A stretch of 64,000 nt of DNA from Sphaerisporangium album. Lineage in GTDB: Bacteria; Actinomycetota; Actinomycetes; Streptosporangiales; Streptosporangiaceae. The stretch's first letter is position 1, and every line of letters starts with the position of its first letter. A program made the position numbers and the translations under genes. Positions 18,825 through 35,274 of the stretch are shown one piece after another. The stretch covers positions 124,001 to 188,000 of the forward strand of contig NZ_QOIL01000012.1 of NCBI RefSeq assembly GCF_003323745.1, given 5' to 3'. The notes under the pieces are model-generated. The model did no database searches, was not told the DNA's origin, and saw only the letters and a program-made list of their open reading frames with translations.

Positions 18825-18912
18825 CGCCGGTTCCTTCCCTCTTTCTGGTTGAGAGGGATGTGGGTATAGGCGAGTGCGGTGTGCACGGTGCGGGCGATCT
18901 GGCCCGCCGGGA

Positions 18913-20791: not shown

Positions 20792-20856
20792 ATCGGGCCG
20801 GGGGTGGCCGCCGGGGCGCACCGCGCCGGTCGGTGCATCAGTGAGGTCGTGACGAC

Positions 20857-21315
20857 ATGGACGAAATGGCGGCAATGACGCCCGATGCGGCTGCTGCGGC
20901 CGCTGTGGGGCGCGTCGCAGATCACATGCACATCGGGCAGGTGGCCGCGCGCACCGGCTTGTCGCTGCGCACCATCCGGCACTACGAGGAGGTCGGGCTG
21001 GTGGTGCCTTCGGCCCGTACCCGAGGCGGGTTTCGCCTGTACACCGAGGCGGACGTGGCCCGGCTGATGGTGATCCGGCGGATGAAGCCGCTGGGGTTCA
21101 CCCTGGGGGAGATGGGCGAGCTGCTGGCCATCACCGATCGGCTGGATGCCGGCATCGACGCGGCCGAGCGCCAGGCGCTGCTAGCGCGGCTGGGCCGCTT
21201 CGAGCAGGCCGCCGCCGACCGGTGCCAGGCGCTGCGTACCCAACTGAGCCAGGCCGAGGAGTTCGCCGCCGACCTGCGCCGGCGCGCCGGCCAGCTGACC
21301 GGCGAACCCGCCTAA
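20857..21315 (+). CDS. MerR-family transcriptional regulator
   Basis: A 152-aa regulator. The helix-turn-helix and wing are MHIGQVAARTGLSLRTIRHY, EEVGLVVPSARTRGGFRLYT and EADVARLMVIRRMKPLGFTL. A dimerisation coiled coil follows (about 95-150). There is no Cys-rich effector loop, so it is unlikely to sense metals through cysteines. Start ATG 20857 has TGAGGT upstream; ATG 20866 and ATG 20926 are alternatives. By position it should control the divergent SulP transporter. Confidence 0.92.
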   Translation: MDEMAAMTPDAAAAAAVGRVADHMHIGQVAARTGLSLRTIRHYEEVGLVVPSARTRGGFRLYTEADVARLMVIRRMKPLGFTLGEMGELLAITDRLDAGIDAAERQALLARLGRFEQAAADRCQALRTQLSQAEEFAADLRRRAGQLTGEPA

Positions 21316-21376
21316 TGGGAGCACCGGGTCGGCTGATCGGGCAGACGGTGCCTGGTAGCCGCCGGTGGGTGAGCAC

Positions 21377-21628
21377 TTACACCGCCTGGACCCCGCCGTT
21401 GGCGATCTGGGTGTTGAGCGCGGCCCGGAGGTCAGAAAGGTCTGCACCTCGACGAAATCCCCGACGGCCAGGTAGGGACGGCGGCTGAGGCTGATGCCCA
21501 CGGATCCGGAGGCGGCGGCCTGGATGGACGCCCACCCGACGGCCGTCGTGCCGTTGATGAGGAAGAATGCCTGTCACAGGCCGGTGCCGTTGGTGACCCA
21601 GATGACGTTGCTCAACACCGCATAGTGG
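21377..21628 (-). pseudogene. Degenerate phage tail/structural protein C-terminus
   Basis: On the minus strand, codons read HYAVLSNVIWVTNGTGL, then a TGA, then in the same frame AFFLINGTTAVGWASIQAAA and GISLSRRPYLAVGDFVEVQT. Coding then passes to another frame: DLRAALNTQIANGGVQAV and stop. This looks like the beta-rich C-terminus of a phage tail or receptor-binding protein with one nonsense and one frameshift lesion. It lies just outside the leftmost tRNA-Ser fragment, so it may belong to an older insertion. Confidence 0.5.
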
Positions 21629-21735
21629 CCTGCGGTCTTGGCGTGATCGCCTGCTGAATGGTCTGGCAATGGTCCGGCAACGCCGTCGTGTCTCGATTCC
21701 GGGCAGAACAAAGGGCCTTCAGCGAATCTTGCGAA

Positions 21736-21779
21736 AGGGCCTTCGAGGTGCGAAGGCTCGGAGATTTGAACCCCGGATG
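21736..21779. repeat. Third, degraded att-like copy of tRNA-Ser(GCT) 3' end
   Basis: These 44 bp match 22690-22733 at 39 positions. The tRNA part (GGCTCGGAGATTTGAACCCC and GGATG) matches the T arm and acceptor of the intact tRNA-Ser at 35185 with one difference. It marks the probable original downstream end of the tRNA before two successive insertions. Confidence 0.65.
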
Positions 21780-21915
21780 CCCGACGACCGCCACAGCTTC
21801 GTCTCTGCTCGGGATCACACTGCGGCACGCGAGTCTGAATACAGACAGTGATTGCTAGTGACTGTGCGTTGTGGCATGGTGCTTGAGTCTTGATCAACTC
21901 TTCTGGGAGGCAACC

Positions 21916-22449
21916 ATGCTCGCTCGCCGTCTGCTGGCCACCGCCGTCATCTCCGCCGCCGTGGGCGCGGTCACCCCCCTGCCTGCGATGGCCTCTGCTC
22001 ACGACCCCGACAGCCGCACCGCCCTGGTCAAGACCCCAATGTGCGTCGACGTCAGCAACAACCGTGGCAACGGCACTCTGATGTACCAGTGGCTGTGCGA
22101 CAACAACAACACCAACCAGAAATTCGCCATCGAGGACGGCCTGATCAAGGTGCAAGACACCATCGGCAAAGGCCAGGTGATGTGTCTGGACTCCTCCAAC
22201 GGCCGCACCAACGGCACCCGGGTCTACCAGTGGCAGTGCGTGGGTAACGCCAACCAGGTCTGGGTCATCCGGAGAGGCGCGATCATCCTCAAGTCCACCC
22301 TCAACTCAAGCAATCCCCTGTGCCTGGACGCCACCAACGGCCGCGGCAACGGCACCCAGGTGTACCTGTGGCAGTGCGACAACAACAACACCAACCAGAA
22401 GTTCGTGATCGACGACGGCCAGATCGCGATCAAGGACACCCTGTCCTGA
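21916..22449 (+). CDS. Secreted ricin-type beta-trefoil lectin
   Basis: A 177-aa precursor. Residues 1-27 are a Sec signal peptide (LLATAVISAAVGAVTPLPAM then ASA). The rest forms one beta-trefoil with three repeats of the ricin-B type, seen as MCVDVSNNRGNGTLMYQW, MCLDSSNGRTNGTRVYQW and LCLDATNGRGNGTQVYLW, each followed by a QKF or QVW closing motif. Such domains bind galactose or xylan in secreted actinomycete proteins. No catalytic domain is attached. Start ATG 21916 has GGGAGG 6 nt upstream. It is the only intact gene between the two left tRNA fragments, so it is cargo of island A. Confidence 0.9.
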   Translation: MLARRLLATAVISAAVGAVTPLPAMASAHDPDSRTALVKTPMCVDVSNNRGNGTLMYQWLCDNNNTNQKFAIEDGLIKVQDTIGKGQVMCLDSSNGRTNGTRVYQWQCVGNANQVWVIRRGAIILKSTLNSSNPLCLDATNGRGNGTQVYLWQCDNNNTNQKFVIDDGQIAIKDTLS

Positions 22450-22551
22450 TCTCTGGTCACACCCGCCAGCTTCCCGATGTACCGCAGGGCGTCAGAGGCA
22501 GGCAGGACGGCGAGCGGCGGAGGGCCGGGTGCGGCGGCGCGGCGCGCCGCG

Positions 22552-22654
22552 AGGTCCATCGTCAAGCGGGCTTGGGTTCGGGACGCCCGACTGCACGATG
22601 CGCGGCACACCGCCGGACGCTCCTCGAGGGGCAGGGGGCGCTCACATCCGCGTC
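22552..22654 (+). pseudogene. Shredded integrase C-terminus of island A
   Basis: Codons read KRAWVRDARLHDARHTAG, then in the next frame TLLEGQGA, then in the third HIRV. Put together this is the box II region of an actinobacterial tyrosine recombinase (HDARHTAATLLLEQGVHIRV-like) with two frameshifts. It lies directly before a terminator and a tRNA-Ser 3' fragment, the same order as the integrase, terminator and tRNA at the right end of element B. Confidence 0.6.
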
Positions 22655-22663
22655 AGAGATCGA

Positions 22664-22698
22664 AAAGGCCCTCGTCCCGGAACCGGGAGAGGGCCTTT
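22664..22698 (-). terminator. Stranded tRNA-type terminator
   Basis: AAAGGCCCTC and GAGGGCCTTT form a 10-bp stem, extended inside by TCCCGG/CCGGGA, followed on the minus strand by TTTT. It follows the tRNA-Ser 3' fragment exactly as a tRNA terminator would, and was presumably displaced from the intact tRNA by element B. Confidence 0.75.
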
Positions 22699-22703
22699 GA
22701 AGT

Positions 22704-22760
22704 GCGGAGGCTCGGGGATTTGAACCCCGGAGGGGCTGTAGGCCCAAACCGCATTAGCAG
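22704..22760. repeat. Left attachment site of element B (tRNA-Ser 3' half)
   Basis: Fifty-seven bp from the anticodon loop to the 3' end of tRNA-Ser(GCT), matching 35184-35240 with two differences (positions 22732 and 22742). Identity ends just inside the anticodon loop, a common crossover point for tRNA-targeting tyrosine integrases. The 5' half of the tRNA is absent here. Confidence 0.85.
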
Positions 22761-23175
22761 CTCGGATCTTGCCCGTTCAATGCGGTTCAAGCTCGACCAA
22801 CGCGCCCGGCCAGTCCCCCTGGAACGGCATGGTACGGGGCGAACTGCAACCCAATCCGGCCAGAGCGCGAACGCTCATGTGATGATCATCTGAATAACGG
22901 CGGCTGCGGCGAGCCCGGCGCCGATCCCTGCCGCCGCGTTCCCCGACACGAGGCCGACAGCGATCGAGATCGCGAACTGAACCCTCGTCGGCCACACTGA
23001 ATCCGTGGAATACGTCGGCCGGGTGCCCGCACCGCCGGCGGCGACATCGCAGCCCTGGCGATCGCCGCCCTCTTCACCGCGGGCTGCCTTGGACTGGCGT
23101 GGCTGGCACACCGCGACAGCCCACACGATCCCGACGAGGATCCCGACCGTCTCGACTGGTAAGCGCAAAAAACCA
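22761..23175. other. Gene-poor left end of element B
   Basis: No intact gene is evident in these 415 bp. A plus-strand frame ending at 23163 encodes GGDIAALAIAALFTAGCLGL then AWLAHRDSPHDPDEDPDRLD, a membrane helix plus acidic tail, but has no start codon. A minus-strand frame nearby also has a hydrophobic end (VQFAISIAVGLVSGNAAAGI). Both look like remnants. Confidence 0.4.
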
Positions 23176-23208
23176 GGGCTCGCGTTTCCAAAATCGAAAC
23201 GCGAGCCC
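23176..23208 (-). terminator. Strong intrinsic terminator of the cargo operon
   Basis: A perfect 13-bp stem (GGGCTCGCGTTTC with GAAACGCGAGCCC) and a 7-nt loop, followed on the minus strand by TGG and six Ts. It lies 7 bp after the stop of the 304-aa cargo gene. Confidence 0.9.
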
Positions 23209-23215
23209 ACGCCTA

Positions 23216-24130
23216 CTACAGATAGTCCAGCCACTTGGGCGGATAATCTAGCCGTATTTCCAAAGGCCCATCGGTAGGCGCGTCCTCCAGTTCACCGCCG
23301 AGCACGATGTTGTCGGGGAAGTGCAAGTTGACATCACATCCGGCGCCGGGGAATCGATCGAGAGAATAGGCGAGATACGGCCGGGCATCGAACAGGAACT
23401 TCCCTGATGGCAGCGGCTTCGGCCGGGCAACCACAACGACTCTTCTGAGCAGCTCTACCCCTCCCAGCTTGTCCAGGCCGTGATGCTGGGTGAGCTGGTC
23501 GAGCAGAAAACACAGGTTGTTACGGGCACGGACCGAGAGATGCTCTCCGAGTAGAGCGGCGGAGAACCCTTGGACCGCTCGGAGGAAGTACCCCAGTTCG
23601 TCTGTCGTCATCGTGGTTGGAGGTACCAGTGGCGCCGGGTCGCGACTGGTTGCCGTAAGCGTCCCATCGGCATCCACGTTGAGCTGGCCATGTACAACGG
23701 AATGACGCAGGTCCACGGTGTTGCCGTACAGGTGCATGAACCGCTTCCACAGCTCGGGCTCTCTGTGGAATGGCTTGACCCCCTGCGGCCCGAGCCCGTT
23801 GAGCGCGGTCCGCACCTTTGCCTCGATCGTTTGCGGTCTACCGTCTGTGCGGGGCGACAGTAGGGGCTCTATGACCAGATCCAGGATCTTCCACGCCATA
23901 CCGAAGATGAGCGGGGTGACGTTGACGGTTGCGGGTTGACCGCCAATAGTCACAACGGCTTTGACCGGGCTAGTGCCGACGATGGCATGAATACGTGGCT
24001 GGTCTCTGGTCTCGTCGAGATAGTCGATGACCTGAAGCCCGGGACTAGCAGTGATCGCCGGAGCGAGATCACCGAGAGCATACCGCTCGAAGCCGGAGTC
24101 TTCCGTGAACTGCGTTAAAGAAAATGGCAC
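23216..24130 (-). CDS. Cargo protein with HEPN-like R-x4-H motif
   Basis: A 304-aa soluble protein I do not recognise as a named family. Residues 75-215 are mainly helical and include LYGNTVDLRHSVVHGQL, with R142 and H147 spaced as in the R-x4-6-H catalytic motif of HEPN ribonucleases (family knowledge; the assignment is inference). The last 90 residues look beta-rich (SGKFLFDARPYLAYSLDRFP). Start GTG 24130 has AGGAG 10 nt upstream, inside the end of the preceding gene only 5 bp away, so the two are coupled. Position beside the att site, with its own terminator, is typical of phage-borne accessory or defence genes. Confidence 0.7.
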   Translation of the reverse strand: MPFSLTQFTEDSGFERYALGDLAPAITASPGLQVIDYLDETRDQPRIHAIVGTSPVKAVVTIGGQPATVNVTPLIFGMAWKILDLVIEPLLSPRTDGRPQTIEAKVRTALNGLGPQGVKPFHREPELWKRFMHLYGNTVDLRHSVVHGQLNVDADGTLTATSRDPAPLVPPTTMTTDELGYFLRAVQGFSAALLGEHLSVRARNNLCFLLDQLTQHHGLDKLGGVELLRRVVVVARPKPLPSGKFLFDARPYLAYSLDRFPGAGCDVNLHFPDNIVLGGELEDAPTDGPLEIRLDYPPKWLDYL

Positions 24131-24135
24131 GAGGT

Positions 24136-24387
24136 TCAGCTCCTGACGGCCCGCCGAGCCTTCTCCGTGACTCGGCAGACACCATCGATACTGCCCACCA
24201 GGGTTTCACCCGTGACCTCGAAGTAGTCACTGTGCCTCAGAGAACGAAGCGCTTTCTGGACGGTCGCCTGGTCCAGCCCGCTCACCTGCTGGATCGCCTC
24301 CGTGGAGACGACTCCGGGGTTATCGCCGTACAGCTGCACGATTGCGGTCAGGACGGGTAAGTCCCGATCGCTCCAATAGTAACTCAT
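24136..24387 (-). CDS. Winged-helix-like partner of cargo protein
   Basis: An 83-aa protein: YYWSDRDLPVLTAIVQLYGD, then VVSTEAIQQVSGLDQATVQK, then ALRSLRHSDYFEVTGETLVG. Helix spacing and the following strands resemble a winged helix (MarR or GntR-like), so it may bind DNA or cap its partner. Start set at ATG 24387 (MSYYWSD). It precedes the 304-aa gene in a two-gene operon. Roles as regulator, antitoxin or complex subunit are all possible. Confidence 0.65.
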   Translation of the reverse strand: MSYYWSDRDLPVLTAIVQLYGDNPGVVSTEAIQQVSGLDQATVQKALRSLRHSDYFEVTGETLVGSIDGVCRVTEKARRAVRS

Positions 24388-24502
24388 GGTGCACAGCGTC
24401 CCACCGGCCACTGATCATTTGCAGCCGAAATACCGGACTTGGCACGCTCCTATCGGCAGGAACGCCTCCCTCAGCGGACCGCATACCGCAGTGCTTCGTC
24501 TG

Positions 24503-24805
24503 TCACTCCCCGAAGCGCCGCATGTGAGGCTCGCCCGCTGGCTCAGCCTTCGGCGGCTCGTACACCGGCTGCTTGCCCGACCACAGCATCAGCTTCCCGA
24601 TCCACGGGTAGGCGCGCTCCAGCCACCGGGCGGCCACGTAGTAGGCGAGCTGGCCACCGACGACCAGCGCACTGGACACGGCCAGGGTCGCGGACTCCGA
24701 CAGGTCTGCGGGGACGGCGACGCCGAGCCCAGCGGCCAGACCGACCACCCCGCCGACGAGTTTGGACGCGGCCATGCGCGCCAGGGAGGTCAAGAAGTTG
24801 GACAT
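24503..24805 (-). CDS. Putative phage holin
   Basis: A 100-aa protein: short N-terminus, two hydrophobic helices (ASKLVGGVVGLAAGLGVAV; LAVSSALVVGGQLAYYVAAR) and a charged, proline-containing tail (GKQPVYEPPKAEPAGEP). Size, topology and position beside an endolysin gene fit a class II holin, which would let the endolysin cross the membrane at lysis. Start ATG 24805 follows GAGGAGG at good spacing. Confidence 0.75.
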   Translation of the reverse strand: MSNFLTSLARMAASKLVGGVVGLAAGLGVAVPADLSESATLAVSSALVVGGQLAYYVAARWLERAYPWIGKLMLWSGKQPVYEPPKAEPAGEPHMRRFGE

Positions 24806-24839
24806 GATGTCCTCCTCAAATGAGGTCGGAAAAGCAGAA

Positions 24840-24862
24840 GACCTGCGGGCTCTCCGCAGGTC
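24840..24862 (-). terminator. Hairpin between endolysin and holin genes
   Basis: GACCTGCGG and CCGCAGGTC form a 9-bp perfect stem with a 5-nt loop, followed on the minus strand by a T-rich tract (CTTCTGCTTTTCC). It may partly terminate transcription before the holin. Confidence 0.6.
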
Positions 24863-24906
24863 AGAGGCGATCTGGTATGTGAGCCGGTATGAAATCGGGC
24901 CGGATG

Positions 24907-25688
24907 TCAGGTGACCGGCAGCGCGAACGCCGCGCGCCAGGTGTCGCGGCCGACGACGCCGTCGGCGTCCAGGCCCTTCTCCTTCTGGAACGCCATGCAC
25001 ACCGCCCGCGAGGCGGCCCCGTAGGCGCCGTCCACGTCGATCGCCCAGCCGCGCCGCTTCATCTGCGCCTGCCAGACGCGCACGTCCTCGCCGCGGACCA
25101 CCGGCGGGTAGGCGAGCAGCCGCCCCGGGAACGGCGGCACGTCACCGCCAGCGGCCGGGACAATCGGCGCGGGCGACTTCCCGCCCGGCCGGGGCGCGCC
25201 CTTGCGCACCCACCCGTACAGGGCGTCCCCCGGGCAGCCGGTGGCGTAGCCGTCGCGGTGCCCTTGATCTCTTTGCCTGCGCCGCCGTGCTCGCGCAGGT
25301 AGTCGATGGCGTCCATGACGCCGAGCAGCAGCTCGTCATTCGGCTCGACGAGCCCGGCGTTGCCGACCAAGGCGAGGACGGCGAAGTGGGCGGAATTCAG
25401 GCCGCCCCCGTTGGCCGCGCACACATGCCCGGGACCGCGGCCGACGAAGACCTTGCGGTGCGGGCAGGCGACCATGCTGTAGCCGATGTCGATCCAGCCG
25501 TTGCCGTCCATATGGAACGCCTGCACCTGCCGCACCTTGGCGACGCACCGGTCGTGGTCGTCCAGGAGAGCCGGGTCGACCCTGTCCCCGGTGTAGTGGA
25601 CCTTGACGCCCCTCGTCGACAGCAGGGGCGAGTACGAGCCGCGGGGTGCGCGAGCGCCCCAGGCGGCACGGGTTACCAGATCGATCAC
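24907..25688 (-). pseudogene. Endolysin (amidase plus peptidoglycan-binding domain), frameshifted
   Basis: The first frame (from GTG 25688, GGAG upstream) encodes a PGRP/amidase_2-type N-acetylmuramoyl-L-alanine amidase: TRAAWGARAPRGSY, VKVHYTGDRVDPALL (zinc His), FHMDGNGWIDIGYSMVACPH and VFVGRGPG. At about 25259-25261 one base appears to be missing; the downstream frame continues GHRDGYATGCPGDALYGWVR (second zinc site) and then a PG-binding domain (VRVWQAQMKRRGWAIDVDGA, DGVVGRDTWRAA) to 24907. Restored length is about 260 aa, normal for actinophage lysins. As given, the protein would lose its zinc ligands near the C-terminus. Confidence 0.85.
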
Positions 25689-25709
25689 GGCTTCTCCTCA
25701 CGGTGTCTT

Positions 25710-26015
25710 CTACACGAGCCAGACGATGACTGCGACGGCGATCGGGCCGATGAACGCGGTAAGCGCCACGCCCAGCGCCCATCTGGCGTTGCCCCTGATC
25801 CGTTCGATGTCCTTCTCGGTACGGCCGACCCGATCGAGCACCGCGGACCGCTCAGCGTCGTAACGGTCGCGGGTGACGAACAGGTCCAGGCGTGTGGCGA
25901 TGACCTGGAGGTCCCGGTCGTGCTGGACGCGCATCTCGGCGATGTCGTCGCGGATGTCGCGGCGGGCGTCCTCCAGGCGGCGCGCCAGCTCGCTCAGGGA
26001 CGGCTCCTTGGCCAT
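25710..26015 (-). CDS. Coiled-coil membrane protein (XhlA-like)
   Basis: A 101-aa protein. Residues 5-75 form a charged coiled coil (SELARRLEDARRDIRDDIAE; DRVGRTEKDIERIRGN) and a single membrane helix closes the protein (LGVALTAFIGPIAVAVIVWL). This matches the XhlA or haemolysin-XhlA-like proteins encoded beside lysis genes in many phages, thought to assist the holin. Start ATG 26015 overlaps the preceding stop (TGATG), and the endolysin gene follows after 21 bp. Confidence 0.75.
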   Translation of the reverse strand: MAKEPSLSELARRLEDARRDIRDDIAEMRVQHDRDLQVIATRLDLFVTRDRYDAERSAVLDRVGRTEKDIERIRGNARWALGVALTAFIGPIAVAVIVWLV

Positions 26016-26524
26016 CACGCGGCCTCCATCGTGTAGGACACCTTGAACTCGGCCGACTCCAGGCGCATGGGCAGCGCGGCGTCGTGGTACACGAGGTAGC
26101 CCAACGGAGTGCCGGGGTGAACGAAGATGGGCCAGGTCTTGGTCCGGCAGGTGCCACCGGTCCCGGCCGGGCGCGGCCGGTGGTCGCTGGTGGCCGTCGA
26201 ATCGTAGCCGGTGACCAGGTTCAGCGGGTCGCGGACGAAGCGGTGCCGCACGTGGGTGGGGCGGTCGGCGGCGTCCAGGTCGGCGATGTCCTGCCAGACC
26301 ATCATCGCGGCCAGGTGTGCCCAGGCGTCGTGGCGGGGCCAGATCAGCCCGGCACGCGGGTCGGAGCTGGTCACGGTGCGGCCGGTGTCGGGCTGCTGTG
26401 CGGGGTGGAGCTTGTCGGGGTCGTAGGACTCGGCGGCGAAGGGGAACCGCACCAGGGTGTACTCCCTGGGCGGGATCATCTGAGGCCCGCCGGTTGTCAG
26501 TGAGCAGATCAGCCATCTCGTCAT
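26015..26524 (-). CDS. Phage minor structural protein, unknown role
   Basis: A 169-aa protein with no named domain. It is rich in aromatic and Thr/Asp residues typical of virion proteins (VRFPFAAESYDPDKLHPAQQ; DRPTHVRHRFVRDPLNLVTG; RLESAEFKVSYTMEAA). Start ATG 26524 is chosen because AGGAGG lies 9 nt upstream; ATG 26479 lacks a ribosome site. It is between tail-type and lysis genes, where actinophages encode minor tail proteins. Confidence 0.6.
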   Translation of the reverse strand: MTRWLICSLTTGGPQMIPPREYTLVRFPFAAESYDPDKLHPAQQPDTGRTVTSSDPRAGLIWPRHDAWAHLAAMMVWQDIADLDAADRPTHVRHRFVRDPLNLVTGYDSTATSDHRPRPAGTGGTCRTKTWPIFVHPGTPLGYLVYHDAALPMRLESAEFKVSYTMEAA

Positions 26525-26561
26525 GGGTCGATGCCTCCTGATGTTCGGCTGTGCCGGATGG

Positions 26562-27080
26562 TCAGGGCAGCGGTTCGACCAGCAGCCACGAGTCCTGAAT
26601 GGCGTGCGTGGATGTCGTGCCGGAGGAGATCCGCCCCTGGAGCTTGAAGGTCGTCGTCCCGGGCGTCAGGTCGGTGTAGACCTTCGTCCTGCTGGTCGAT
26701 CGCGGCACGGCCACGGGGTCGGTTGCGGCGCCATTGTTGTCGCCGGCTGCGCTGGCGCTGTTGGCCGTCGTGGGGGCGGCTGTGTTCGCTCCGCTCAGCA
26801 CGGGGGCGACGCGAAGGGTTGAGGTCCCTGTGGCGTTGTTGTAGCCGGAGAACCCCCCCGACACGCGAACTTTTCCGCTGGCGGGCACGACGATCGACAC
26901 GGTCGGCTGGCCGGTGTAGTCGAGGAAGGCACCGGTCGAGGCAACGGTGCGGTTACCGCCGCTCTCGTCGTGGGCGTACTGTCCGCCGGTCATGATGACC
27001 TGCATGGCGCGCAGGCGCTTCTCCAGGGCGGCGATGCGGCGCAGCAGCGTCGCGGTGTCGGTTGGGTCCAGGGTGCCCAT
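26562..27080 (-). CDS. Tail-fibre-like protein
   Basis: A 172-aa protein with a short N-terminal coiled coil (ATLLRRIAALEKRLRAMQVI) followed by a beta-rich, Gly/Thr/Ser-rich domain (TVSIVVPASGKVRVSGGFSG; RTKVYTDLTPGTTTFKLQGR; HAIQDSWLLVEPLP). This layout is typical of trimeric phage tail or receptor-binding proteins. Start ATG 27080. It resembles in style, but not in sequence, the decayed fragment at 21377-21628. Confidence 0.65.
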   Translation of the reverse strand: MGTLDPTDTATLLRRIAALEKRLRAMQVIMTGGQYAHDESGGNRTVASTGAFLDYTGQPTVSIVVPASGKVRVSGGFSGYNNATGTSTLRVAPVLSGANTAAPTTANSASAAGDNNGAATDPVAVPRSTSRTKVYTDLTPGTTTFKLQGRISSGTTSTHAIQDSWLLVEPLP

Positions 27081-27088
27081 GGCGCGGC

Positions 27089-27437
27089 CTACTTGAGCGG
27101 CGTGGGGACGGCCGGGATGGCGGGCGGCTCTCCGGCGTGCTGCGCGGGGGGCTCGGGGTCGGGCTCGGGGATGTTGACGACGATGACCGCTTCGGCGCCG
27201 GGGTAGTCGGCGGGGACGAATCCGCGTTCTGGGGTGCATGAAGGCATGCCGGGTGCGGCGGGACAGGTCGAGGTCGGCGATCTCCCAGGGCGTCAGGCCC
27301 TGGTCGGCCAGGTAGGTCTCGGCCTGAGCGATGGCGTCGGCGCGGCGGGTCTTGGCCTCTGCAACCTTGCCCGCATTGTCGGGCCTGGCCAGCGGACCCT
27401 GGTCGACGACGAGGCCGTGTCCGGGCAGGTGCTTCAC
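27089..27437 (-). pseudogene. Small phage protein, frameshifted
   Basis: From GTG 27437 (AGGAGG 6 nt upstream) the frame encodes KHLPGHGLVVDQGPLARPDN and QAETYLADQGLTPWEIADLD up to HAFMHP. In the CCCC run at 27231-27234 coding passes to another frame: ERGFVPADYPGAEAVIVVNI, then a Pro-rich end and stop at 27089. One extra C explains it. Restored length is about 115 aa. Function unknown; it lies among tail-type genes. Confidence 0.7.
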
Positions 27438-27447
27438 AGGGGACCTC

Positions 27448-28214
27448 CTAGATCTGGTAGACGCCGGCGAGCACGAGCTGGCAGCCGGACGCCCAGGCGA
27501 ACGGGATGGTGCCGCTGGCGCCGGTGCCGGTCTGCACGGGGATGCGGTCGACGCCGGCGGCGCCGCTGAGCAGGCCGCTGGACCAGGCGCCCGAGCCGTA
27601 GGTGGTGGTGGTGCCGGTGACCAGGCGGATGCGGATGTGCACCGTCTTGGCGGTGTCGGCCACCTTGTACGCCCCGGCCAGGGTGCCGTTTCCCAGCACC
27701 GGGTTGGTGGTGGCGCCTGTCCAGGTCGGATGCACGGGCTCGACGTCGCCCAGGGCGCGGGCGGCGGTCCGCGCCAGCCGCAGCGCCTCGGCCTCGACGT
27801 GCTCCGCCAAGTCCTGCTGCTCCTCGACCCTGCGGAGCAGGCCGACGATGCGCGAGAGCCGCGCGCCCGTGGACGCGCCGACAAGGGCGGTCAGGCCGAG
27901 CCGGTCGGCGATGGCTCCCTCCAGTTCGGCCACCGACACCTCGAGGTCGGCCAAGACGGCGAGGAGGTCATATCCAGCGGGGCCCGGCCGTCGCCGATGA
28001 CCGTGATGCCGGCCGTGATGTTCGCCGTCTTGGCCTCGCGCTCGGCGACGGCCAGGGCGTCGAGGCGGGTGCGCTGGTCGGCGGTGAGGTCGCGCTGTGC
28101 CCAGCGCCGGGGCGTACCCGGGACCAGCGCAGCGCGCAGCGCGGGCAGCCGACCGCGCAGGGCGGCCAGCTGCTCGTAGGCGCGCTCAGTGGTACCGGCC
28201 GGGTGCTGGGTCAC
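27448..28214 (-). pseudogene. Phage structural-type protein, frameshifted
   Basis: From GTG 28214 (GTGA overlap with the previous gene) codons read RAYEQLAALRGRLPALRAAL and AKTANITAGITVIGDGRAPL. Near 27970-27985 coding moves to another frame: YDLLAVLADLEVSVAELEGA, then LSRIVGLLRRVEEQQDLAEH, and a beta-rich end (TVHIRIRLVTGTTTTYGSGA). The second half has no natural start. Restored length is about 255 aa. The central part is related to the fragment at 5438-5644. Confidence 0.65.
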
Positions 28215-28837
28215 GGGCTCTGCCCGGCGACGACGTCGAGCAGCACGGCCCCGTGGCACAGGTCCGGCTCGGCCCACCAGTCCGCGGGCAGGCGGCACCA
28301 GCACGCCAGGTCGCGCCCGGCCAGCTCCCGGCGGGCCTGCTCGACCAGCTCGGGACGCGCGCGCAGGCGGGCCCGGTACAGCTCGACGGCCTCGGCCGTG
28401 GTGTGGACCTGGCCGCCGCACGCGCGGCATCCGTTGGGTGAGGTGCTGTGCGGGTTGGCGTAGGGCGAAGCGGGCAGGCCGGGCGCGGCGCGGCCGACGT
28501 ACAGCGCGCTGTCGGGGACGCGGCCGTGGAAGAGGTCGCCCTCGACCTGGACGCGCTGCCTGGGGGCCGGGACGCCGACGAGCTCATCGTCGAGCTCGGC
28601 CAGCAGCGCCATGGTGGCGCCCTCGTCGTACAGCCGTTGGTCGTACGTCTCGGCGGTCTGGGTGAGCAGGCGGCCGATGTGCGCGGCGCGGCCGGGCGTG
28701 AGGGTCAGCCTCACGGTCCTGCCGTCATCGAAGGTGGCGTTGAGGATGGTGACGTCCCGGTCCTCGTTCATCTGGACGCGGACCTCGGTCGGGTCGTCCG
28801 AGCCAGTGATCGTCTCGGGCTCGTGGTCGCTGTTCAT
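28211..28837 (-). CDS. DUF4326-domain phage protein
   Basis: A 208-aa protein. The C-terminal half is DUF4326: ALYVGRAAPGLPASPYANPH, then AVELYRARLRARPELVEQAR, then LAGRDLACWCRLPADWWAEP and the closing CHGAVLLD. This domain recurs in phage genomes and its biochemical role is unknown. The N-terminal half is acidic (TILNATFDDGRTVRLTLTPG). Start ATG 28837 has AAGGGA at good spacing; the frame extends to 28921 without another site. Confidence 0.8.
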   Translation of the reverse strand: MNSDHEPETITGSDDPTEVRVQMNEDRDVTILNATFDDGRTVRLTLTPGRAAHIGRLLTQTAETYDQRLYDEGATMALLAELDDELVGVPAPRQRVQVEGDLFHGRVPDSALYVGRAAPGLPASPYANPHSTSPNGCRACGGQVHTTAEAVELYRARLRARPELVEQARRELAGRDLACWCRLPADWWAEPDLCHGAVLLDVVAGQSP

Positions 28838-28917
28838 CGTGGTCCCTTCGTGGAGCGTGCGAGGCTTGGCTGGGACCACCCGGATAGCGCCCGGGTGGTC
28901 CCCTCGCGTGGTCGTGG

Positions 28918-29094
28918 TCACGGCCGGGCGAGCTTGCGGAGGTTGGCCAGGATGAGCCTGAGCAGACGCCCCTGCTCGGTGTCGGCGATCTCGTCGACCA
29001 CGTCGAGCGCGCCGCGGATCTGGTCGAGCTCGCGGGCGTCGTCGAGCTGGTCGGCGATCCGCCGGGCCGTCCGCGCCCTGGCCGTCGCGGTCAT
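28918..29094 (-). CDS. Small helical phage protein
   Basis: A 58-aa frame: TATARARTARRIADQLDDAR, then ELDQIRGALDVVDEIADTEQ, then GRLLRLILANLRKLARP. It is fully helical with no known domain. Its ATG at 29094 overlaps the stop of the upstream 70-aa gene (ATGA), which supports real translation. The stop at 28918 lies just upstream of the DUF4326 gene. Confidence 0.65.
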   Translation of the reverse strand: MTATARARTARRIADQLDDARELDQIRGALDVVDEIADTEQGRLLRLILANLRKLARP

Positions 29095-29303
29095 CGGTCG
29101 GCCTGCCCGTCCGGCTCGGGCCGCTCGATCAGGGCCGTCACCTCGTCGAGCCGGGCGTTGACCTGGACTCCGAACCGGTCGACCCGGGCCTGAAGGTCGC
29201 GGACCTCCTCGGTGGTCGGAGTGTCGGGCTGCTGGATGCCGAGGAGCTGGTCGAGCTTGCGCTCGATCCTGTCCAGGGCCTCGATGTGCTGCTGATCGGT
29301 CAT
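29091..29303 (-). CDS. Small coiled-coil phage protein
   Basis: A 70-aa acidic protein made of two predicted coiled coils: HIEALDRIERKLDQLLGIQQ and EVRDLQARVDRFGVQVNARL. No named domain. Start ATG 29303 is preceded by AAGGGAACC. It is coupled to the following 58-aa gene by a 4-bp overlap and follows the replication ATPase gene. Confidence 0.65.
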   Translation of the reverse strand: MTDQQHIEALDRIERKLDQLLGIQQPDTPTTEEVRDLQARVDRFGVQVNARLDEVTALIERPEPDGQADR

Positions 29304-29387
29304 GTCCGGTTCCCTTCTGATCGGGATGGATGGGTCAGGCTGAGGCGTCGTCGGGGAACGCCCCCGTCCCAGCGATGGACGGGCGGG

Positions 29388-30191
29388 TCATCCGGGAGCG
29401 ACTTCCTCGTAGTAGGGCGCCCAGTTGCCAGGAGCCCTCACGGGCCGAGGCGGGACCATGAACGTCAGCGGCGGGGACGCAACGCCGCCCTGGCGGCGCC
29501 GGTCGTTGCCGTCGAAGACGACCCGCTGGGCCATCTCGTTCAACCGCCCGGTGATCCGGTCACCGAGGCGTTCCTTGATCTCGTCGAGCTCCAAGTTCGA
29601 GACGAAGACCGTGGGGGCCATGTGCTCGTAGCGGTAGTTCACGAGCCGGAACACCACCTCGTTCACGGTCCAGTCGCTGGCCTTCGCGCTGCCGAGGTCG
29701 TCGAGAACAAGCAGCTCGGCCTGCGCGACCCGCTCGAACTCCGCTTCGGAGTCCACGCCGGGGCGTGGCCGCAGCCGGGCGAATAGGTCGCCCTCGGTCA
29801 GGGCCGCCCAGTGGGCTGCGATGCCCGCCTCGGCGACGGCCCGGATGACTCCGTACGCCTCGAAGGTCTTGCCCCGGCCCGTCGCGCCGAGCAGGAACAG
29901 AGACCCGCCACGGGCCAGGCCCCGACCGGGTACCGCGTTGGTCGCCGAGATCAGCGCGTCCGTCCAGGCGGCGATCTCCGCGTGAGTGATCGCGGCGTCG
30001 CGGTAGCGCAGCGGGATGCGGTCGCGGGTCCGCTGGACCAGGTCGCGCCGCCGCTCCAGCTCGAACTCGCGGCGCTGCTGGTCGGCGTCCGAGGTCACCG
30101 AGCGGAGCGAACGGTCGGCGACGTTGGCCAGGCAACGCTCGGCGAGAACGCCGATGCTCTGCGGTCTCCTGTCGTGGATGGGTGCGGTCAT
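29388..30191 (-). CDS. DnaC/IstB-like replication ATPase
   Basis: A 267-aa AAA-type ATPase. Walker A is LFLLGATGRGKTFEAYGVIR, Walker B LLVLDDLGSAKASDW, sensor 1 PTVFVSNLEL, and an arginine-finger region lies near RITGRLNEMAQRVVFDG. It matches DnaC-like helicase loaders of actinophages, which act with a DNA-binding initiator. Start ATG 30191 overlaps the stop of the upstream initiator-like gene (ATGA), so the two form a replication module. Confidence 0.88.
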   Translation of the reverse strand: MTAPIHDRRPQSIGVLAERCLANVADRSLRSVTSDADQQRREFELERRRDLVQRTRDRIPLRYRDAAITHAEIAAWTDALISATNAVPGRGLARGGSLFLLGATGRGKTFEAYGVIRAVAEAGIAAHWAALTEGDLFARLRPRPGVDSEAEFERVAQAELLVLDDLGSAKASDWTVNEVVFRLVNYRYEHMAPTVFVSNLELDEIKERLGDRITGRLNEMAQRVVFDGNDRRRQGGVASPPLTFMVPPRPVRAPGNWAPYYEEVAPG

Positions 30192-31060
30192 CACAACTCC
30201 CCGTAGTAGCCGGATGAATCTGTGGGGTCGCGGTACGGCTGGTGGCCTGGTGCGGCCTTGGTACCGTCGCGCTGCGCCTGGAGGCGCAAGGTGTCGTACT
30301 TCTCGCGGAGCTTGTGCATGGAGAGCACGTTCGACCGCCAGAACTCCGAGTCCTGGCACCAGTCGATGGCCTTGTGCACCTGCTCCTCGGTCCGGCCGTC
30401 GGCGTCGATCATCAGCCGGACGGCGTCCCTCCATCGCTTGCTGATCGTGGGCCGCTTGCTGTCGTTCTGCTCGATGCGGTCCGCGAGGTGCTCGCAGATC
30501 CGTTCGACGTCTTCGCGGACTGGGTCGCCGTCGCGCGGCGAAGCCGACGACGAAGAAGTAAGAAGTACTTCTTCTGTGGGGTTGGGGTTGGGAGCACCCG
30601 TTACGGGGCCGTTAGTAACGCCGTTACGGGTGCCGTTACGCTTCTCGGCCTTCTGGCGGTCACGCCATGCCCTCTGACGTGCGGCGTTGCTCTTGCGCCC
30701 GGCCTCGATCTGCTCCTTCGACCCCTGGTAATCGAGGTAGTCGTGGACGCGATACCCCCCCTCGACCTCATGCCAGAGACGGGCCTCGACCAGTCTCCTG
30801 ATGACGATGCGCGCTATGGCGGGCGTTAGGTCGTCGTTACTGCTCCCGTTAGTAACGGCGTTACGGTCGGCGTTACGCACTGCCTCGACCGCGTCCTCGA
30901 AGTCGAGCAGGCGAGCCGCCGTCCTGCGCGGTATGAACCCATCGCTCAGGTTCCTGTTACACCAGGCGAGCGAGGCGGTGAACAGCGCGATCCCCAGCGA
31001 CCCGACCCGGTCGAACTTCGGGTGATCGTAGAAGTCGTCGCTGAGGCGTACCCACGCCAC
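30191..31060 (-). CDS. Phage replication initiator-like protein
   Basis: A 289-aa protein. The N-terminus (MAWVRLSDDFYDHPKFDRVG, then LGIALFTASLAWCNRNLSDG) is the winged-helix start found in replisome-organiser proteins of actinophages. A linker rich in Lys, Asn and Ser follows (about 125-165). The C-terminus has a DnaD-like helical part (MIDADGRTEEQVHKAIDWCQ). It probably binds the origin and recruits the DnaC-like partner encoded next. Seven GTTAC/GTAAC-type motifs occur within the gene (30599-30875), which could act as iterons. Start ATG 31060. Confidence 0.8.
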   Translation of the reverse strand: MAWVRLSDDFYDHPKFDRVGSLGIALFTASLAWCNRNLSDGFIPRRTAARLLDFEDAVEAVRNADRNAVTNGSSNDDLTPAIARIVIRRLVEARLWHEVEGGYRVHDYLDYQGSKEQIEAGRKSNAARQRAWRDRQKAEKRNGTRNGVTNGPVTGAPNPNPTEEVLLTSSSSASPRDGDPVREDVERICEHLADRIEQNDSKRPTISKRWRDAVRLMIDADGRTEEQVHKAIDWCQDSEFWRSNVLSMHKLREKYDTLRLQAQRDGTKAAPGHQPYRDPTDSSGYYGEL

Positions 31061-31061
31061 C

Positions 31062-31871
31062 TCAGTCCGCCGCGGGCTCGATGGTGATCAGGGCCATCTG
31101 CCGGAGCGGAGGCATCCGACCGGCGCGGACTCCGGCCGCGACCAGTCGCCGCCAGATGAACGCCTCTCCTCTCGGGGTGACGTAGGTGACGGACCGTTCG
31201 AGCGGCGCCCGGTCGGGGTCGACGTTCACCAGGGCGACCTTGACCTCGAAGTAGCCGGCCTGTACGTACATGGCCATCGGCTCGTTGCGACGCGATCCTG
31301 TCTGGATCAGCACGTGTTCCGCGAACAGGAACTCCCGGAGCGCCTTCTCTCTCAGCCCGAACCTCTTGGCCACCGTGCCGACCAGGGCGAGCCCGTCGGC
31401 GTCCATGGTTTGGCGGGCACGGGCGGCCTCCGGCTCCAGCTCGGCGATCTTCGCCTGTTTGGCCTCGATCTCCCGGGCCTGCCTCGCGGCGAGCTCCAGC
31501 GCCTCGGCGTACGACGCCGGGATGACGTGCTGCGGCTGGACCGTGTACGAGCCGGTGTGACGGATCGCGGGCAGCACCTCGTGCGTCACCCACCGCTTGA
31601 ACGCCTTGGCCTCCGGCTTGCGGCTGCGGAGGATCAGCGAGTACAGGCCGGGCTCGTTGATGACGATCGTCGACTGCTGACGTCCCATGGAGTCGATGAC
31701 CGGGACAGTGTCATGCTCATCGTCGTCCAGCAGGTTGAGCGAGGCCCTCGCGTCAGCGATGCCGAGGATCTCGGCAGCGTCGCGGCCGACGAACCACGAC
31801 TCGCCGTTGAGCAGGATCGCGCGGATCGTCTGTCCCGTGTCGGGACAGACGAAGCGCTGCAACTCGCTCAT
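31062..31871 (-). CDS. Phage antirepressor (BRO-N plus C-terminal KilAC-like domain)
   Basis: A 269-aa protein. The N-terminal BRO-N domain (about 5-105) includes TIRAILLNGESWFVGRDAAE, NEPGLYSLILRSRKPEAKAF and KRWVTHEVLPAIRHTGSYTV. A coiled coil follows (about 125-155), then a C-terminal antirepressor domain (VAKRFGLREKALREFLFAEH). Such proteins counter the prophage repressor or regulate early genes. Start ATG 31871 overlaps the previous stop (ATGA). Confidence 0.9.
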   Translation of the reverse strand: MSELQRFVCPDTGQTIRAILLNGESWFVGRDAAEILGIADARASLNLLDDDEHDTVPVIDSMGRQQSTIVINEPGLYSLILRSRKPEAKAFKRWVTHEVLPAIRHTGSYTVQPQHVIPASYAEALELAARQAREIEAKQAKIAELEPEAARARQTMDADGLALVGTVAKRFGLREKALREFLFAEHVLIQTGSRRNEPMAMYVQAGYFEVKVALVNVDPDRAPLERSVTYVTPRGEAFIWRRLVAAGVRAGRMPPLRQMALITIEPAAD

Positions 31872-32152
31872 CAGTGGGTCTCGGCGAAACGCGCGGCCTC
31901 GATGTGCGCCAAGACGTCGCTTTCCCAGGCGACGACGCGGCGGCCGAGGCGGAAGTAGTAGCTGGCCTGGCCCTGGTGGCGGAGCCACCGCTCCGTGGCG
32001 GGTGAGGTCCGCTTCATCGCCGCGACCTCGTCGATGGTGAGCCAGCGGTCGTTGCTCCGCTTCTCGCGCAGCTGCTCGGCTACCTGCGGAGATAGGGAGG
32101 TGCTGACGGAGAGATCGCTGCGAACCTGAGAGAACTCAGTGGTACTTTTCAC
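31871..32152 (-). CDS. Excisionase-like helix-turn-helix protein
   Basis: A 93-aa protein with a MerR-like helix-turn-helix of the Xis/AlpA type: DRWLTIDEVAAMKRTSPATE, then RWLRHQGQASYYFRLGRRVV and AWESDVLAHI. Excisionases of this type direct integrase towards excision. Start GTG 32152 has AAGGA 8 nt upstream. It is the first gene of the long leftward operon, divergent from the repressor, as in many actinobacterial elements. Confidence 0.85.
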   Translation of the reverse strand: MKSTTEFSQVRSDLSVSTSLSPQVAEQLREKRSNDRWLTIDEVAAMKRTSPATERWLRHQGQASYYFRLGRRVVAWESDVLAHIEAARFAETH

Positions 32153-32241
32153 TTGCGCGTCCTTGTTGGCATCCGTTGGTAGCGGTAGACGTCGGGGATC
32201 AACGCGCTCTGGGCCTGGCGGGGGTAGGAGCCCGCCGGGCC

Positions 32242-32255
32242 CATCTCATGAGATG
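32242..32255. promoter_or_regulatory. 14-bp perfect palindrome in control region
   Basis: CATCTCATGAGATG lies 90 bp upstream of the excisionase-like gene, in the 399-bp region between divergent operons of element B. It is a plausible operator for a dimeric regulator of the leftward operon. Confidence 0.45.
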
Positions 32256-32455
32256 AGCCCTTCGGCCGTTGCTGCTAGATCAGCGACTCACCAGCACCAT
32301 ACGACACGCGGCGCCCACGTGTCACCATCAACGGGAACGAACAGACACCCAATGTGCAACACAGAGCCTCCCCGGTCAGGACGCGACATAGCAACAGCGT
32401 AGAAGCCATAGGAAGCATCGCGCTTGTACACAACTCGGGCATACATATCGTTGGG

Positions 32456-32480
32456 CATTGTTGACAATGCTTGTGCATCG
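32456..32480 (+). promoter_or_regulatory. Repressor promoter with palindromic operator
   Basis: GCATTGTTGACAATGC (32456-32471) is a perfect 7-bp inverted repeat around TG. It contains a consensus -35 TTGACA (32462-32467); a weak -10 (GCTATC) follows at about 17 bp spacing. An operator over the -35 of the repressor gene is what autorepression would need. A related motif, TTGTACACAA, lies about 30 bp upstream. Confidence 0.6.
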
Positions 32481-32551
32481 TGGGCTATCGTGGGTTGCAC
32501 ACGGAAGGGTCGCCCTGTTGGAACTCCCCCAAGCACAGGAGCAGTCACCCC

Positions 32552-33646
32552 ATGTCAGACCCCACCCTCGAAGCTCAACTCGGCCTCGGAGTCCATCTGC
32601 GCAACCGGCGCGAGGAGATTCGCATCAGCCAGGCAACCCTCGCCTGGCTCGCCAGAGTCTCCCGGAACACCGTCAGTAACTTGGAGCGGGATGCGGTCGC
32701 GGAGCCGGACGACCGGGTCCTTAACAACGTGGAGGCCGCCCTCGGACTCGATCACTGGTACGCGTACAGCTCCACGCACCATCCTCGGGACGCCATGCTG
32801 CTCGTGCAGCCGCGAATCGCTCACCGCCTGATCGAAGTCATCGAACGGCTAAAGCGCGAGGATCCGAAAACAGCAAGGGACGCTGCCGATGCGTACGTCG
32901 CATTCATGGCAGCTCTGCGAGACGCGCGGGATGATGATTCCCGGCTGAGTGCTCATCAAGCTCTACAGGAAGAGGCGGGCCGCCTGGCGCAGTTCATTGT
33001 CCCGCGCCTCGACCTGGCTACTGAGCTGGACTCATCCATTCGCGCGTTTCTGGAAGACCAAGGGTGGTCCCCGGAAGACTCCACCTTTCTCGGGGGCGGC
33101 GCTGCTCTCATCTCGGTGCGTGCTTCGACTACCGATTCCGCGCGGATGACCGAGACCGCAGCGAGGATCCACAGCGAACTGGACAAGCTGCGCGAGCAGA
33201 TCGGGCAAATGACCGAGACATTCGCTCCGGCGCTGTTCGTGCGTCACGATGAAGCGAACGCATTCGGCCGGCTGCCTATCCGCGTGCAAGACGCGCTTCT
33301 TTCAGGCCAGGTGATTGATGCGGACATCGTCAAGCCACCACACACTGAAGGTATTTCACTGCTCACGATGGTGGTCCGGCAGGACGACTCAGAAGCACCG
33401 CTCACTGCGGAGGGTCGAAAGGCACTCATCAATTCTCTGCACATATGGCACCTATCCCTCGTCGCTGCGGCTGGCATGTTCTCATTCATGCAAAAGCATT
33501 CCTGGATGGCCCCCGAGGTGGTTGAGGACAGGATTAAGGAAGCGCTCGCGGTCATCACCGAGTCCCCGCAAACCGGCCTGGCAACACATCCCGGACAGTC
33601 GGATAGCGCGACCGAGCCCGACCACAGCTCGGAGGAGGCTCGATGA
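32552..33646 (+). CDS. XRE-family prophage repressor-like protein
   Basis: A 364-aa protein. The XRE helix-turn-helix is at about 10-70 (GVHLRNRREEIRISQATLAW, then LARVSRNTVSNLERDA). The rest is a long mainly helical region without a peptidase motif, so it is not a LexA-type self-cleaving repressor. Start ATG 32552 has AGGAG 11 nt upstream. The stop overlaps the start of the integrase gene by 4 bp, so the repressor and integrase were translationally coupled. By position it maintains the integrated state. Confidence 0.8.
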   Translation: MSDPTLEAQLGLGVHLRNRREEIRISQATLAWLARVSRNTVSNLERDAVAEPDDRVLNNVEAALGLDHWYAYSSTHHPRDAMLLVQPRIAHRLIEVIERLKREDPKTARDAADAYVAFMAALRDARDDDSRLSAHQALQEEAGRLAQFIVPRLDLATELDSSIRAFLEDQGWSPEDSTFLGGGAALISVRASTTDSARMTETAARIHSELDKLREQIGQMTETFAPALFVRHDEANAFGRLPIRVQDALLSGQVIDADIVKPPHTEGISLLTMVVRQDDSEAPLTAEGRKALINSLHIWHLSLVAAAGMFSFMQKHSWMAPEVVEDRIKEALAVITESPQTGLATHPGQSDSATEPDHSSEEAR

Positions 33647-35088
33647 AGCGTGCCGGCGTTGTGAAGAAGCGATGCGACTGCCGTGACCCGCAGACGGGTA
33701 AGCAGCTGGGCGACCGTTGCCCCCAGCTCAGAGTCCATGTGAAGGGCCGCGACGGCGGGCCCAAGCTCGGCAAAGATGGACAGCCCGAATGGCGCTGGAG
33801 CCGCGATCACGGCACCTGGTGGGCTCGATAATCGGCGCCACCTGGCCCTGATGGCAAGCGTCGCCAGCCCTGGATCGGCCCGTTCGAGAACGCGACCGAG
33901 GCGGAGAAGGCACTCCGGAAGGCGCTCACCGTCGCGGATGAGGGTGGCATTGCTGCGGAGCGGACTCTCACGGTCGGGTCTTACCTGCGCTTGTGGGTTG
34001 AGGGAAAGAACCGGCTCAAGGACTCCACGCGGGCCTCCTACGTGGAGGCGATCAACCTCTATCTCGTCCCTGGCATCGGCCATGTGCGGCTTCAAGACCT
34101 GAGCGAGCATCACCTTGCCCAGCTCTCCGCTGCGATGGTGCAGATCAACAACCTGCCGGAGGACCAGAAGCCTTCGGAGATGCTGCGCCGTCTACTGGGG
34201 GCCCGCTCGCTCGCCCCGAAGGTCCGCCTAGCGGAAGGCGAGAAGCCGGGGCTGAAGCGGAAGCAGCCGCTGTCGGCCTCGCGTATCCAGCGCGTGCATC
34301 GGGTGCTTTCGTCCGCACTCGGCACGGCGGTGAAGACGAAGAAGATCGGGCGCAACCCTGCCGAACATGTCGAGCTGCCGCGCGTTCCGAAACGCCGCCC
34401 CCTGGTCTGGACGCCGGAGAGGGTGGCGCGCTGGCGGGAGACTGGCAAGGTTCCGGGCAAGGTCATGGTCTGGGGACCGCAGCTGTGCGGTGAGTTCCTG
34501 GACTTCGCCGAGGCCCGGAAGGAACGGCTATACCCGCTGTACCACCTGACGGCGACGCGCGGCCTTCGCCGCGGCGAGGTCTGCGGCGTGCGGTGGGAGG
34601 ACAGCGACTTCGACGGCACGAAGACCGTGAGCCTTCTGGAGTCGCTCGACGAAGACGACGACGGCCTGAAGTCAGAGGCGTCCTGGCGAACTGTTGCCCT
34701 GGACGACATCAAACTGACGTTGCTGAGGGCGTGGCGCGCGAATCAGCGGCGTGAGCGCCTGGCGGCTGGCGCCGATTGGACCGACACGGGCCTGATCTTC
34801 ACGACCGAGGATGGGAAGGCGCTTCGCGAGGAATACGTCTCCGAGAGGTTCGCAGCGATCGTCAAGGCTGCGGGGCTTCCCCCGATCCGGTTTCATGATC
34901 TGCGGCACTGCGCTGCGACGCTGATGCTCGCGGCGGGCGTGGACATGAAGGTCGTCAGCGCGACGCTCGGTCACAGCAGGTACTCGTTCACCGCCGACGT
35001 CTACACCTCAGTCGTCCCCGAGGTGGCCCAGGCGGCAGCCGAGGCGACGGCCGCGATCATTCCGAGGAGGCGCGCGATGAGCACATGA
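33643..35088 (+). pseudogene. Element B tyrosine integrase with in-frame stop
   Basis: Read through, the frame encodes 481 aa. The N-terminus is VVKKRCDCRDPQTGKQLGDR with a Cys motif usual in actinobacterial integrases, then an arm-binding domain (PWIGPFENATEAEKALRKAL), a core-binding domain (VGSYLRLWVEGKNRLKDSTR) and the catalytic domain: TRGLRRGEVCGVRWED (Arg I), HDLRHCAATLMLAAGV (His-x-x-Arg), LGHSRYSFTADVYTSV (His and Tyr). Codon 63 (33829-33831) is TAA between WWAR and SAPPGPDGKRR where Tyr is expected. Restart at TTG 33991 would leave most of the core-binding domain but no arm-binding domain. Confidence 0.88.
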
Positions 35089-35134
35089 CACGGGCTTGTG
35101 CTCATCGCGTGCTCACGTTGGCCTTGAAACGCAA

Positions 35135-35179
35135 ATCAGGGGATCCCTACGGAAGATCCTTCCGAGAGAAACCCCTGAT
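35135..35179. terminator. Terminator between integrase and tRNA-Ser
   Basis: ATCAGGGG and CCCCTGAT form the outer stem and CGGAA/TTCCG the inner one. It lies 46 bp after the integrase stop and 5 bp beyond the tRNA 3' end, so it can serve both convergent transcripts. Confidence 0.75.
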
Positions 35180-35183
35180 CAGA

Positions 35184-35240
35184 GCGGAGGCTCGGGGATT
35201 TGAACCCCGGATGGGCTGTAGACCCAAACCGCATTAGCAG
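35184..35240. repeat. Right attachment site of element B
   Basis: The 3' half of the intact tRNA-Ser(GCT), from the anticodon loop outward, matching 22704-22760 at 55 of 57 positions. Because the repeat reconstitutes the tRNA end, insertion left the tRNA functional. Confidence 0.85.
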
Positions 35241-35274
35241 TGCGGCGCCATAGACCTGACTAGGCGAAGCCTCC
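35185..35274 (-). tRNA. tRNA-Ser (anticodon GCT)
   Basis: A 90-nt class II tRNA: acceptor GGAGGCT/AGCCTCC with discriminator G, anticodon stem CCGCA/TGCGG around loop CTGCTAA (anticodon GCT), a long variable arm (TTGGGTCTACAGCCCA) and T arm CGGGG-TTCAAAT-CCCCG. CCA not encoded. It is the integration target of element B and, by inference, of island A. Confidence 0.95.

What the first reader, a model, noticed from the sequence alone, without database searches (positions are those of the whole stretch)
21736..35274. Tandem insertion array at one tRNA-Ser(GCT)
Three copies of the tRNA 3' end lie in a row: intact at 35185-35274, a 57-bp near-perfect half at 22704-22760, and a degraded 44-bp match at 21736-21779. 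Left of each of the two right-hand copies are an integrase (intact frame or shredded) and a terminator in the same order. The simplest history is island A inserted first, then element B between A and the tRNA. The crossover lies in the anticodon loop.
Basis: partly seen in the sequence, partly recalled or inferred. Interest (0 to 1): 0.7.

Follow-up and report, generated by a model that had tools for sequence, protein, structure and literature searches.

The report
Stacked mobile-element fossils at one tRNA
One serine tRNA gene of a soil actinomycete seems to have been used repeatedly as a landing site by plasmid-like elements and a phage, leaving a stack of half-copies of the tRNA; this is a well-preserved case of a known process, with some extra twists.

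Summary
The three copies are real: tRNA-Ser(GCT) 35184-35274, a 57-bp half at 22704-22760 (2 mismatches) and a decayed fragment at 21750-21779. Accretion at one tRNA is right, but the history is longer than two steps. Left of copy 1 is the integrase end of a third element, C. Left of copy 2 is a 22-residue scrap of an AICE-type integrase, A1. Right of copy 2, 22761-22854 is an AICE-type left end, A2. Next to the tRNA is a decayed 12-kb prophage, B, whose integrase has an internal stop at 33829. A weak candidate for B's left arm at 22871 makes copy 2 look like a mosaic junction. The tRNA is a hotspot: partial copies in 17 of 60 genomes, integrase remnants beside it in two more same-genus species. 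One same-genus species shows no integrase there, but is not proven empty. Against a purely serial history, a lectin gene between copies 1 and 2 lies outside the array in two relatives. Ordinary in kind (AICE accretion is published); unusual in mixing AICE and phage.

The parts
35184..35274 (-). tRNA-Ser(GCT), intact, 3' half presumably rebuilt by the last insertion
   Evidence: ARAGORN; 100% identical in 10 of 11 same-genus genomes incl. own, 96% in G009
35135..35179 (-). terminator-like hairpin of element B directly after the tRNA
   Evidence: fold -29.1 kcal/mol, z -4.5; inverted repeat
35097..35118 (+). proposed arm-site pair of element B (GTGCTCA twice, 11 bp apart), 87 bp from the tRNA; one more perfect 11-mer lies inverted at 35075-35085
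   Evidence: same motif beside tRNA-Ser(GCT) in Actinomadura sp. KC06; this pair has 2 mismatches in 9 and does not pass the 1-mismatch scan
33643..35088 (+). tyrosine integrase of B, interrupted by an in-frame stop at 33829-33831; the frame from the next listed start, 33991, lacks the Arm-DNA-bind_4 stretch
   Evidence: PF00589 E 1.5e-20; Arm-DNA-bind_4 at residues 70-101, 20.2 bits, below its cut-off of 22.3
32471..33646 (+). HTH regulator of B (possible repressor)
   Evidence: PF13560/PF01381
31871..32152 (-). excisionase-like small protein
   Evidence: phrog_66 E 7e-4; homologue in the G018 prophage
31062..31988 (-). phage anti-repressor (Bro-N + KilAC)
   Evidence: phrog_130 E 2e-65
30191..31060 (-). 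phage replication initiator
   Evidence: phrog_2447 E 4e-43
29388..30434 (-). DnaC-like helicase loader
   Evidence: phrog_50 E 1e-32
26562..27884 (-). minor tail protein remnant; only residues 323-440 of this frame match
   Evidence: phrog_7565 E 6.5e-9; frames
25059..25688 (-). endolysin N-terminal part (residues 1-144 match), rest of the frame unlike it
   Evidence: phrog_1493 E 1e-17
22871..22889 (+). candidate degenerate left arm-site pair of B, about +111 from copy 2
   Evidence: second-best TGCTCAT pair at 11 bp in 64 kb, + strand; seen by eye first and core chosen afterwards; with the earlier core the chance is about 1%; not flagged by the scan
22761..22854 (+). AICE-type (A2) left end with one A arm site (AACTGCAAC at 22842), about +82 from the copy
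22704..22760 (-). copy 2: 57-bp tRNA 3' half
22661..22700 (-). A-type terminator beside copy 2
   Evidence: fold -27.4, z -4.9; 92% to G004 over 105 bp with the copy
22551..22654 (+). remnant of A1 integrase around its HxxR box
   Evidence: 22 aa, 77%, E 3e-6; DNA 76% to G004/G010
21750..21779 (-). copy 1: decayed tRNA 3' fragment
21637..21735 (+). integrase end of element C: arm pair AATGGTCYGGC twice (21657, 21668) and weak terminator hairpin
   Evidence: 79% to G006 junction over 143 bp
21871..22449 (+). ricin-B-type lectin gene lying between copies 1 and 2; outside the array in G006 and G008
   Evidence: PF00652 E 2.5e-19

Best explanation
The site is an accretion array. Elements with tyrosine integrases each recombine into the anticodon-to-3'-end half of the same tRNA-Ser(GCT). 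Each brings its own copy of that half plus a terminator, so the tRNA stays whole while the displaced half moves outward. At least three and probably four insertions are recorded: C (phage-family integrase end at copy 1), A1 (AICE-type integrase scrap at copy 2), A2 (AICE-type left end right of copy 2) and last B, a prophage that has lost its head genes and most tail genes and whose integrase is interrupted. A later deletion or recombination joined the A2 left end to B and removed one tRNA half. Shown: copies, hairpins, A- and C-type flanks, B gene content and stop. Inferred: integrase action, order of insertion, the A2-B fusion, loss of mobility.
For: Copies. Hotspot: partial copies in 17 of 60 genomes incl. 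own, plus a contig-edge fragment in G048. A = AICE: the 18.9-kb G006 element carries RepSA (E 7e-94), FtsK, GntR, NUDIX and integrase. A-type left end right of copy 2: arm site at +81 to +83 in 7 of 20 half-copies incl. copy 2; background 5 of 376 tiles. A|A junction precedent in G032. B-family rule: paired 11-bp repeats at +106 to +119 in 6 of 20 half-copies, each with a similar integrase-side pair in the same genome, for 3 of 6 on another contig; random stretches give 4.5%. C end. B is a prophage; in G018 a 39-kb relative with terminase, portal, head and tape-measure genes sits at the same tRNA, integrase 64% identical.
Against: The lectin gene between copies 1 and 2 lies about 9-10 kb outside the array, in the same orientation, in G006 and G008, so a purely serial order does not explain copy 1. 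The right flank of copy 1 shows no A or B signature. No left copy of C was found at 12000-21600 and no convincing C integrase residues. B's left arm is only a degenerate candidate, and B's own pairs on both sides fall short of the scan used for relatives. 7 of 20 half-copies show neither right-hand signature.
Confidence: 0.82

Rival explanations
1. Three insertions only (C, A1, B): the B phage itself carried a mosaic attP whose first 94 bp derive from an AICE, so copy 2 is simply B's distal site.
For: B-like arm pair near the expected offset, +111 (rule); no trace of an A2 body.
Against: By eye, three other B-family left ends (G002, G018, G050) show no A-like sequence, and none of the six has an A arm site; an A|A junction exists in G032.
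Confidence: 0.3
2. Copy 1 is not part of the series but a fragment moved there by rearrangement, since the lectin to its right lies outside the array in relatives.
For: Lectin position varies among relatives and its DNA identity roughly, not strictly, follows that of the tRNA's right-hand neighbour region; copy 1 has no recognisable element left end on its right.
Against: Copy 1 keeps its C arm pair and hairpin in register and lies only about 0.9 kb from copy 2.
Confidence: 0.35
3. Chance similarity unrelated to integration.
For: None beyond the short length of copy 1.
Against: E-values of 1e-20 and 1e-5 in the genome, integrase remnant and arm signatures at the junctions.
Confidence: 0.01

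Closest known systems
AICE accretion at a tRNA-Arg gene in a Streptomyces population (PMC9513070; passages seen)
   Same: Different elements with different integrases stacked in one tRNA, remnants, identical direct repeats
   Different: Here tRNA-Ser(GCT), another family, with a phage among the elements and an apparent mosaic junction
pSAM2-type AICEs (PMC3218068; passages seen)
   Same: The G006 A-type relative has RepSA, FtsK-type translocase, GntR, NUDIX and tyrosine integrase; tandem AICEs reported at tRNA-Lys and tRNA-Arg
   Different: In the window only an integrase scrap and one left end remain
Mycobacteriophage cluster K attP sites (PMC3203893; passages seen)
   Same: Paired 11-bp arm sites flanking a core in a tRNA or tmRNA gene, and for CrimD a terminator between core and arm
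   Different: Other integrases and repeat sequences; here seen as prophage and fossil junctions

Membership tests
Tandem accretion array at a tRNA gene | Repeated copies of the target's 3' part separating elements, intact tRNA at one end | tested here: met
Tandem accretion array at a tRNA gene | Integrase end next to each inner copy | tested here: met
   B at tRNA, A1 scrap at copy 2; at copy 1 only the C arm pair and flank, no convincing C integrase residues
Tandem accretion array at a tRNA gene | Empty site in a relative | tested here: inconclusive
   G009: one copy, no A/B/C integrase match in its 19-kb stretch, but about 6 kb left of the tRNA has no match in the window
AICE (elements A1, A2 in the window) | RepSA-type Rep and FtsK-type translocase within the element | tested here: not met
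   none among the window frames scanned; present in the G006 relative, so A1/A2 are AICE-like ends, not AICEs
Temperate prophage (element B) | Integrase, regulator/anti-repressor, phage replication genes | tested here: met
Temperate prophage (element B) | Packaging and capsid genes | tested here: not met
   none among the frames scanned; present in the G018 relative; B is a remnant
Temperate prophage (element B) | Excises and forms virions | not testable with these tools
   interrupted integrase and missing structural genes make it unlikely

The most novel reading that the evidence does not exclude
Stacked attachment sites at this tRNA let AICEs and phages exchange attachment arms: the junction at 22704-22889 joins a tRNA half, an AICE left end with its arm site and a phage arm pair, a mosaic site that either integrase type might bind.
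Probability: 0.25. Interest if true: 0.5.

Novelty: new member of a known kind. Interest (0 to 1): 0.32.

Why it matters
It suggests that a single tRNA serves as a shared dock for conjugative elements and phages across one actinomycete family, and that arm-site repeats can hint which extinct element a fossil junction belonged to even after the integrase is gone. That makes insertion histories readable and testable; the process itself is already known.

Tried and rejected
I first read B's left end as lost (note) and revised this when a candidate arm pair was seen by eye near 22872 and then counted (note); the narrower core was chosen afterwards. The lectin was first taken as A1 cargo; its places in G006 and G008 speak against it. 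No further tRNA half was found at 12000-21600: best score 21, against 18-24 in five shuffles and 50 for copy 1. The C integrase query gave nothing convincing at 13-22.8 kb (best E 0.049). A PADLOC scan of 10 proteins gave a mad1 match for the MerR-type protein at 20857 (E 5e-13) and one marginal hit at 24136. Plasmid collection: one record, matching the tRNA only. Phage collection, integrase query: 824 records, all under 60% identity. Paper searches showed accretion to be known; no title listed there describes this tRNA-Ser site in this family, but I saw listings for most, and only open PubMed Central papers are held. That arm repeats bind integrase, and the family name Streptosporangiaceae, are general knowledge.

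Full report
Setting. The window lies in a 9.3-Mb actinomycete genome (G000).

Observation. The tRNA and both partial copies are present and beyond chance. Copy 2 matches 57 tRNA bases with 2 mismatches. Copy 1 keeps 30 tRNA bases, but its similarity continues outward through the hairpin, and 143 bp match a half-copy junction of G006 (E 1e-29), so it derives from this kind of site; no other tRNA of this genome fits it better. Identity ends at tRNA nucleotide 35, just before the anticodon; 17 of the 21 partial matches end at 57-60 bases (the others at 30, 32, 61 and 64). This bounds the crossover without locating it.

Relatives. Of 60 genomes incl. own, 56 had a match to the tRNA and 17 also a partial copy, plus one contig-edge fragment in G048. 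In the genus, 8 of 11 genomes incl. own had partial copies. Of the other three, G001 and G005 have decayed A-type integrases beside the tRNA, and G009 has no A-, B- or C-type integrase match in its 19-kb stretch, though about 6 kb left of its tRNA has no match in the window. The region right of the tRNA (from about 36.1 kb) matches in all ten tRNA-bearing stretches compared: nine same-genus genomes (G007 was not compared) and G015.

Element types. In G006 the A-type element spans 18.9 kb with NUDIX, GntR, FtsK, RepSA and integrase, i.e. an AICE. The A-type integrase of G010 and that of B share 25% identity. The B family includes the window's B, G002 and G018. A 39-kb relative of B in G018 sits at the same tRNA and has terminase, portal, head and tape-measure genes; B keeps 12.4 kb with early genes and pieces of tail and lysis genes. 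B's integrase has a stop at 33829, and the next listed start is 33991.

Arm signatures. and one search examined 20 half-copies and 20 tRNA junctions in 32 loci. Six half-copies have a paired 11-bp repeat at +106 to +119, each with a similar pair on the integrase side of a copy in the same genome (three of the six on another contig, so linkage is not shown there). Random 160-bp stretches of the window give such a pair in 4.5% of cases. Seven half-copies, copy 2 among them, have the A arm site at +81 to +83; one more (G019) has it at +16 and is not counted; with that one, seven have neither signature. At copy 2 the A-type similarity runs to about 22854. The GTGCTCA pair of B lies beside the tRNA at 35098, with an inverted 11-mer at 35075; neither this pair nor anything right of copy 2 passes the strict scan. 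The next candidate, at 22871, is degenerate: with the core used earlier its score is reached at 0.033% of positions, about 1% over 26 positions; with a better core chosen afterwards it is second in the whole + strand. I treat B's left arm as likely but unproven.

Copy 1. Its left flank carries the ATGGTCYGGCA pair at 93 bp, as at 88-92 bp in G002, G006 and G008. A 36-bp part of this flank (92%) recurs beside a second B-family integrase in this genome, near a tRNA-Lys, so arm sequence and target tRNA are not tied together.

Terminators. The integrase ends at the tRNA and at copy 2 have strong hairpins right after the tRNA 3' end; the A-type and the G009 ones are alike, B's is different. A terminator between core and arm site is also described for a mycobacteriophage attP (PMC3203893, passages).

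History. C, A1, A2, B from left to right, oldest leftmost, is the simplest reading, with a later A2-B fusion. The lectin conflicts with strict seriality: in G006 and G008 it lies outside the array by about 9-10 kb, so either it moved or copy 1 did.

Verdict. Accretion of AICEs at tRNA genes is known (PMC9513070, PMC3218068; passages), hence a modest interest score.

Noticed in passing
5834-6157: Remnant of a related tyrosine integrase about 1.2 kb from tRNA-Arg(ACG) 7328-7403; in G015 a similar match lies close to the stretch that matches the same tRNA, suggesting a second hotspot.
   Followed up: partly
21871-22449: Ricin-B-type lectin; relatives in 6 other genomes of 60 at varying places.
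   Followed up: partly
L096 11367-13107: Second B-family integrase of the same genome near tRNA-Lys(TTT), with the C-type arm repeat.
   Followed up: partly
L103; L123, L126, L127: Nonomuraea thailandensis has a tRNA-Ser match and two partial copies over 53 kb, with a B-family integrase facing a half-copy of opposite orientation.
   Followed up: no
13816-21637: About 8 kb (DUF418, sulfate permease, MerR regulator) with almost no match in the relatives' stretches compared; possibly the body of element C.
   Followed up: no
23216-24130: Unknown 304-aa frame in the left part of B, with matches in only 5 of 150 family genomes incl. own.
   Followed up: partly
L110 10001-10532: Actinomadura sp. KC06: truncated B-type integrase with three GTGCTC-type repeats at tRNA-Ser(GCT).
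   Followed up: partly
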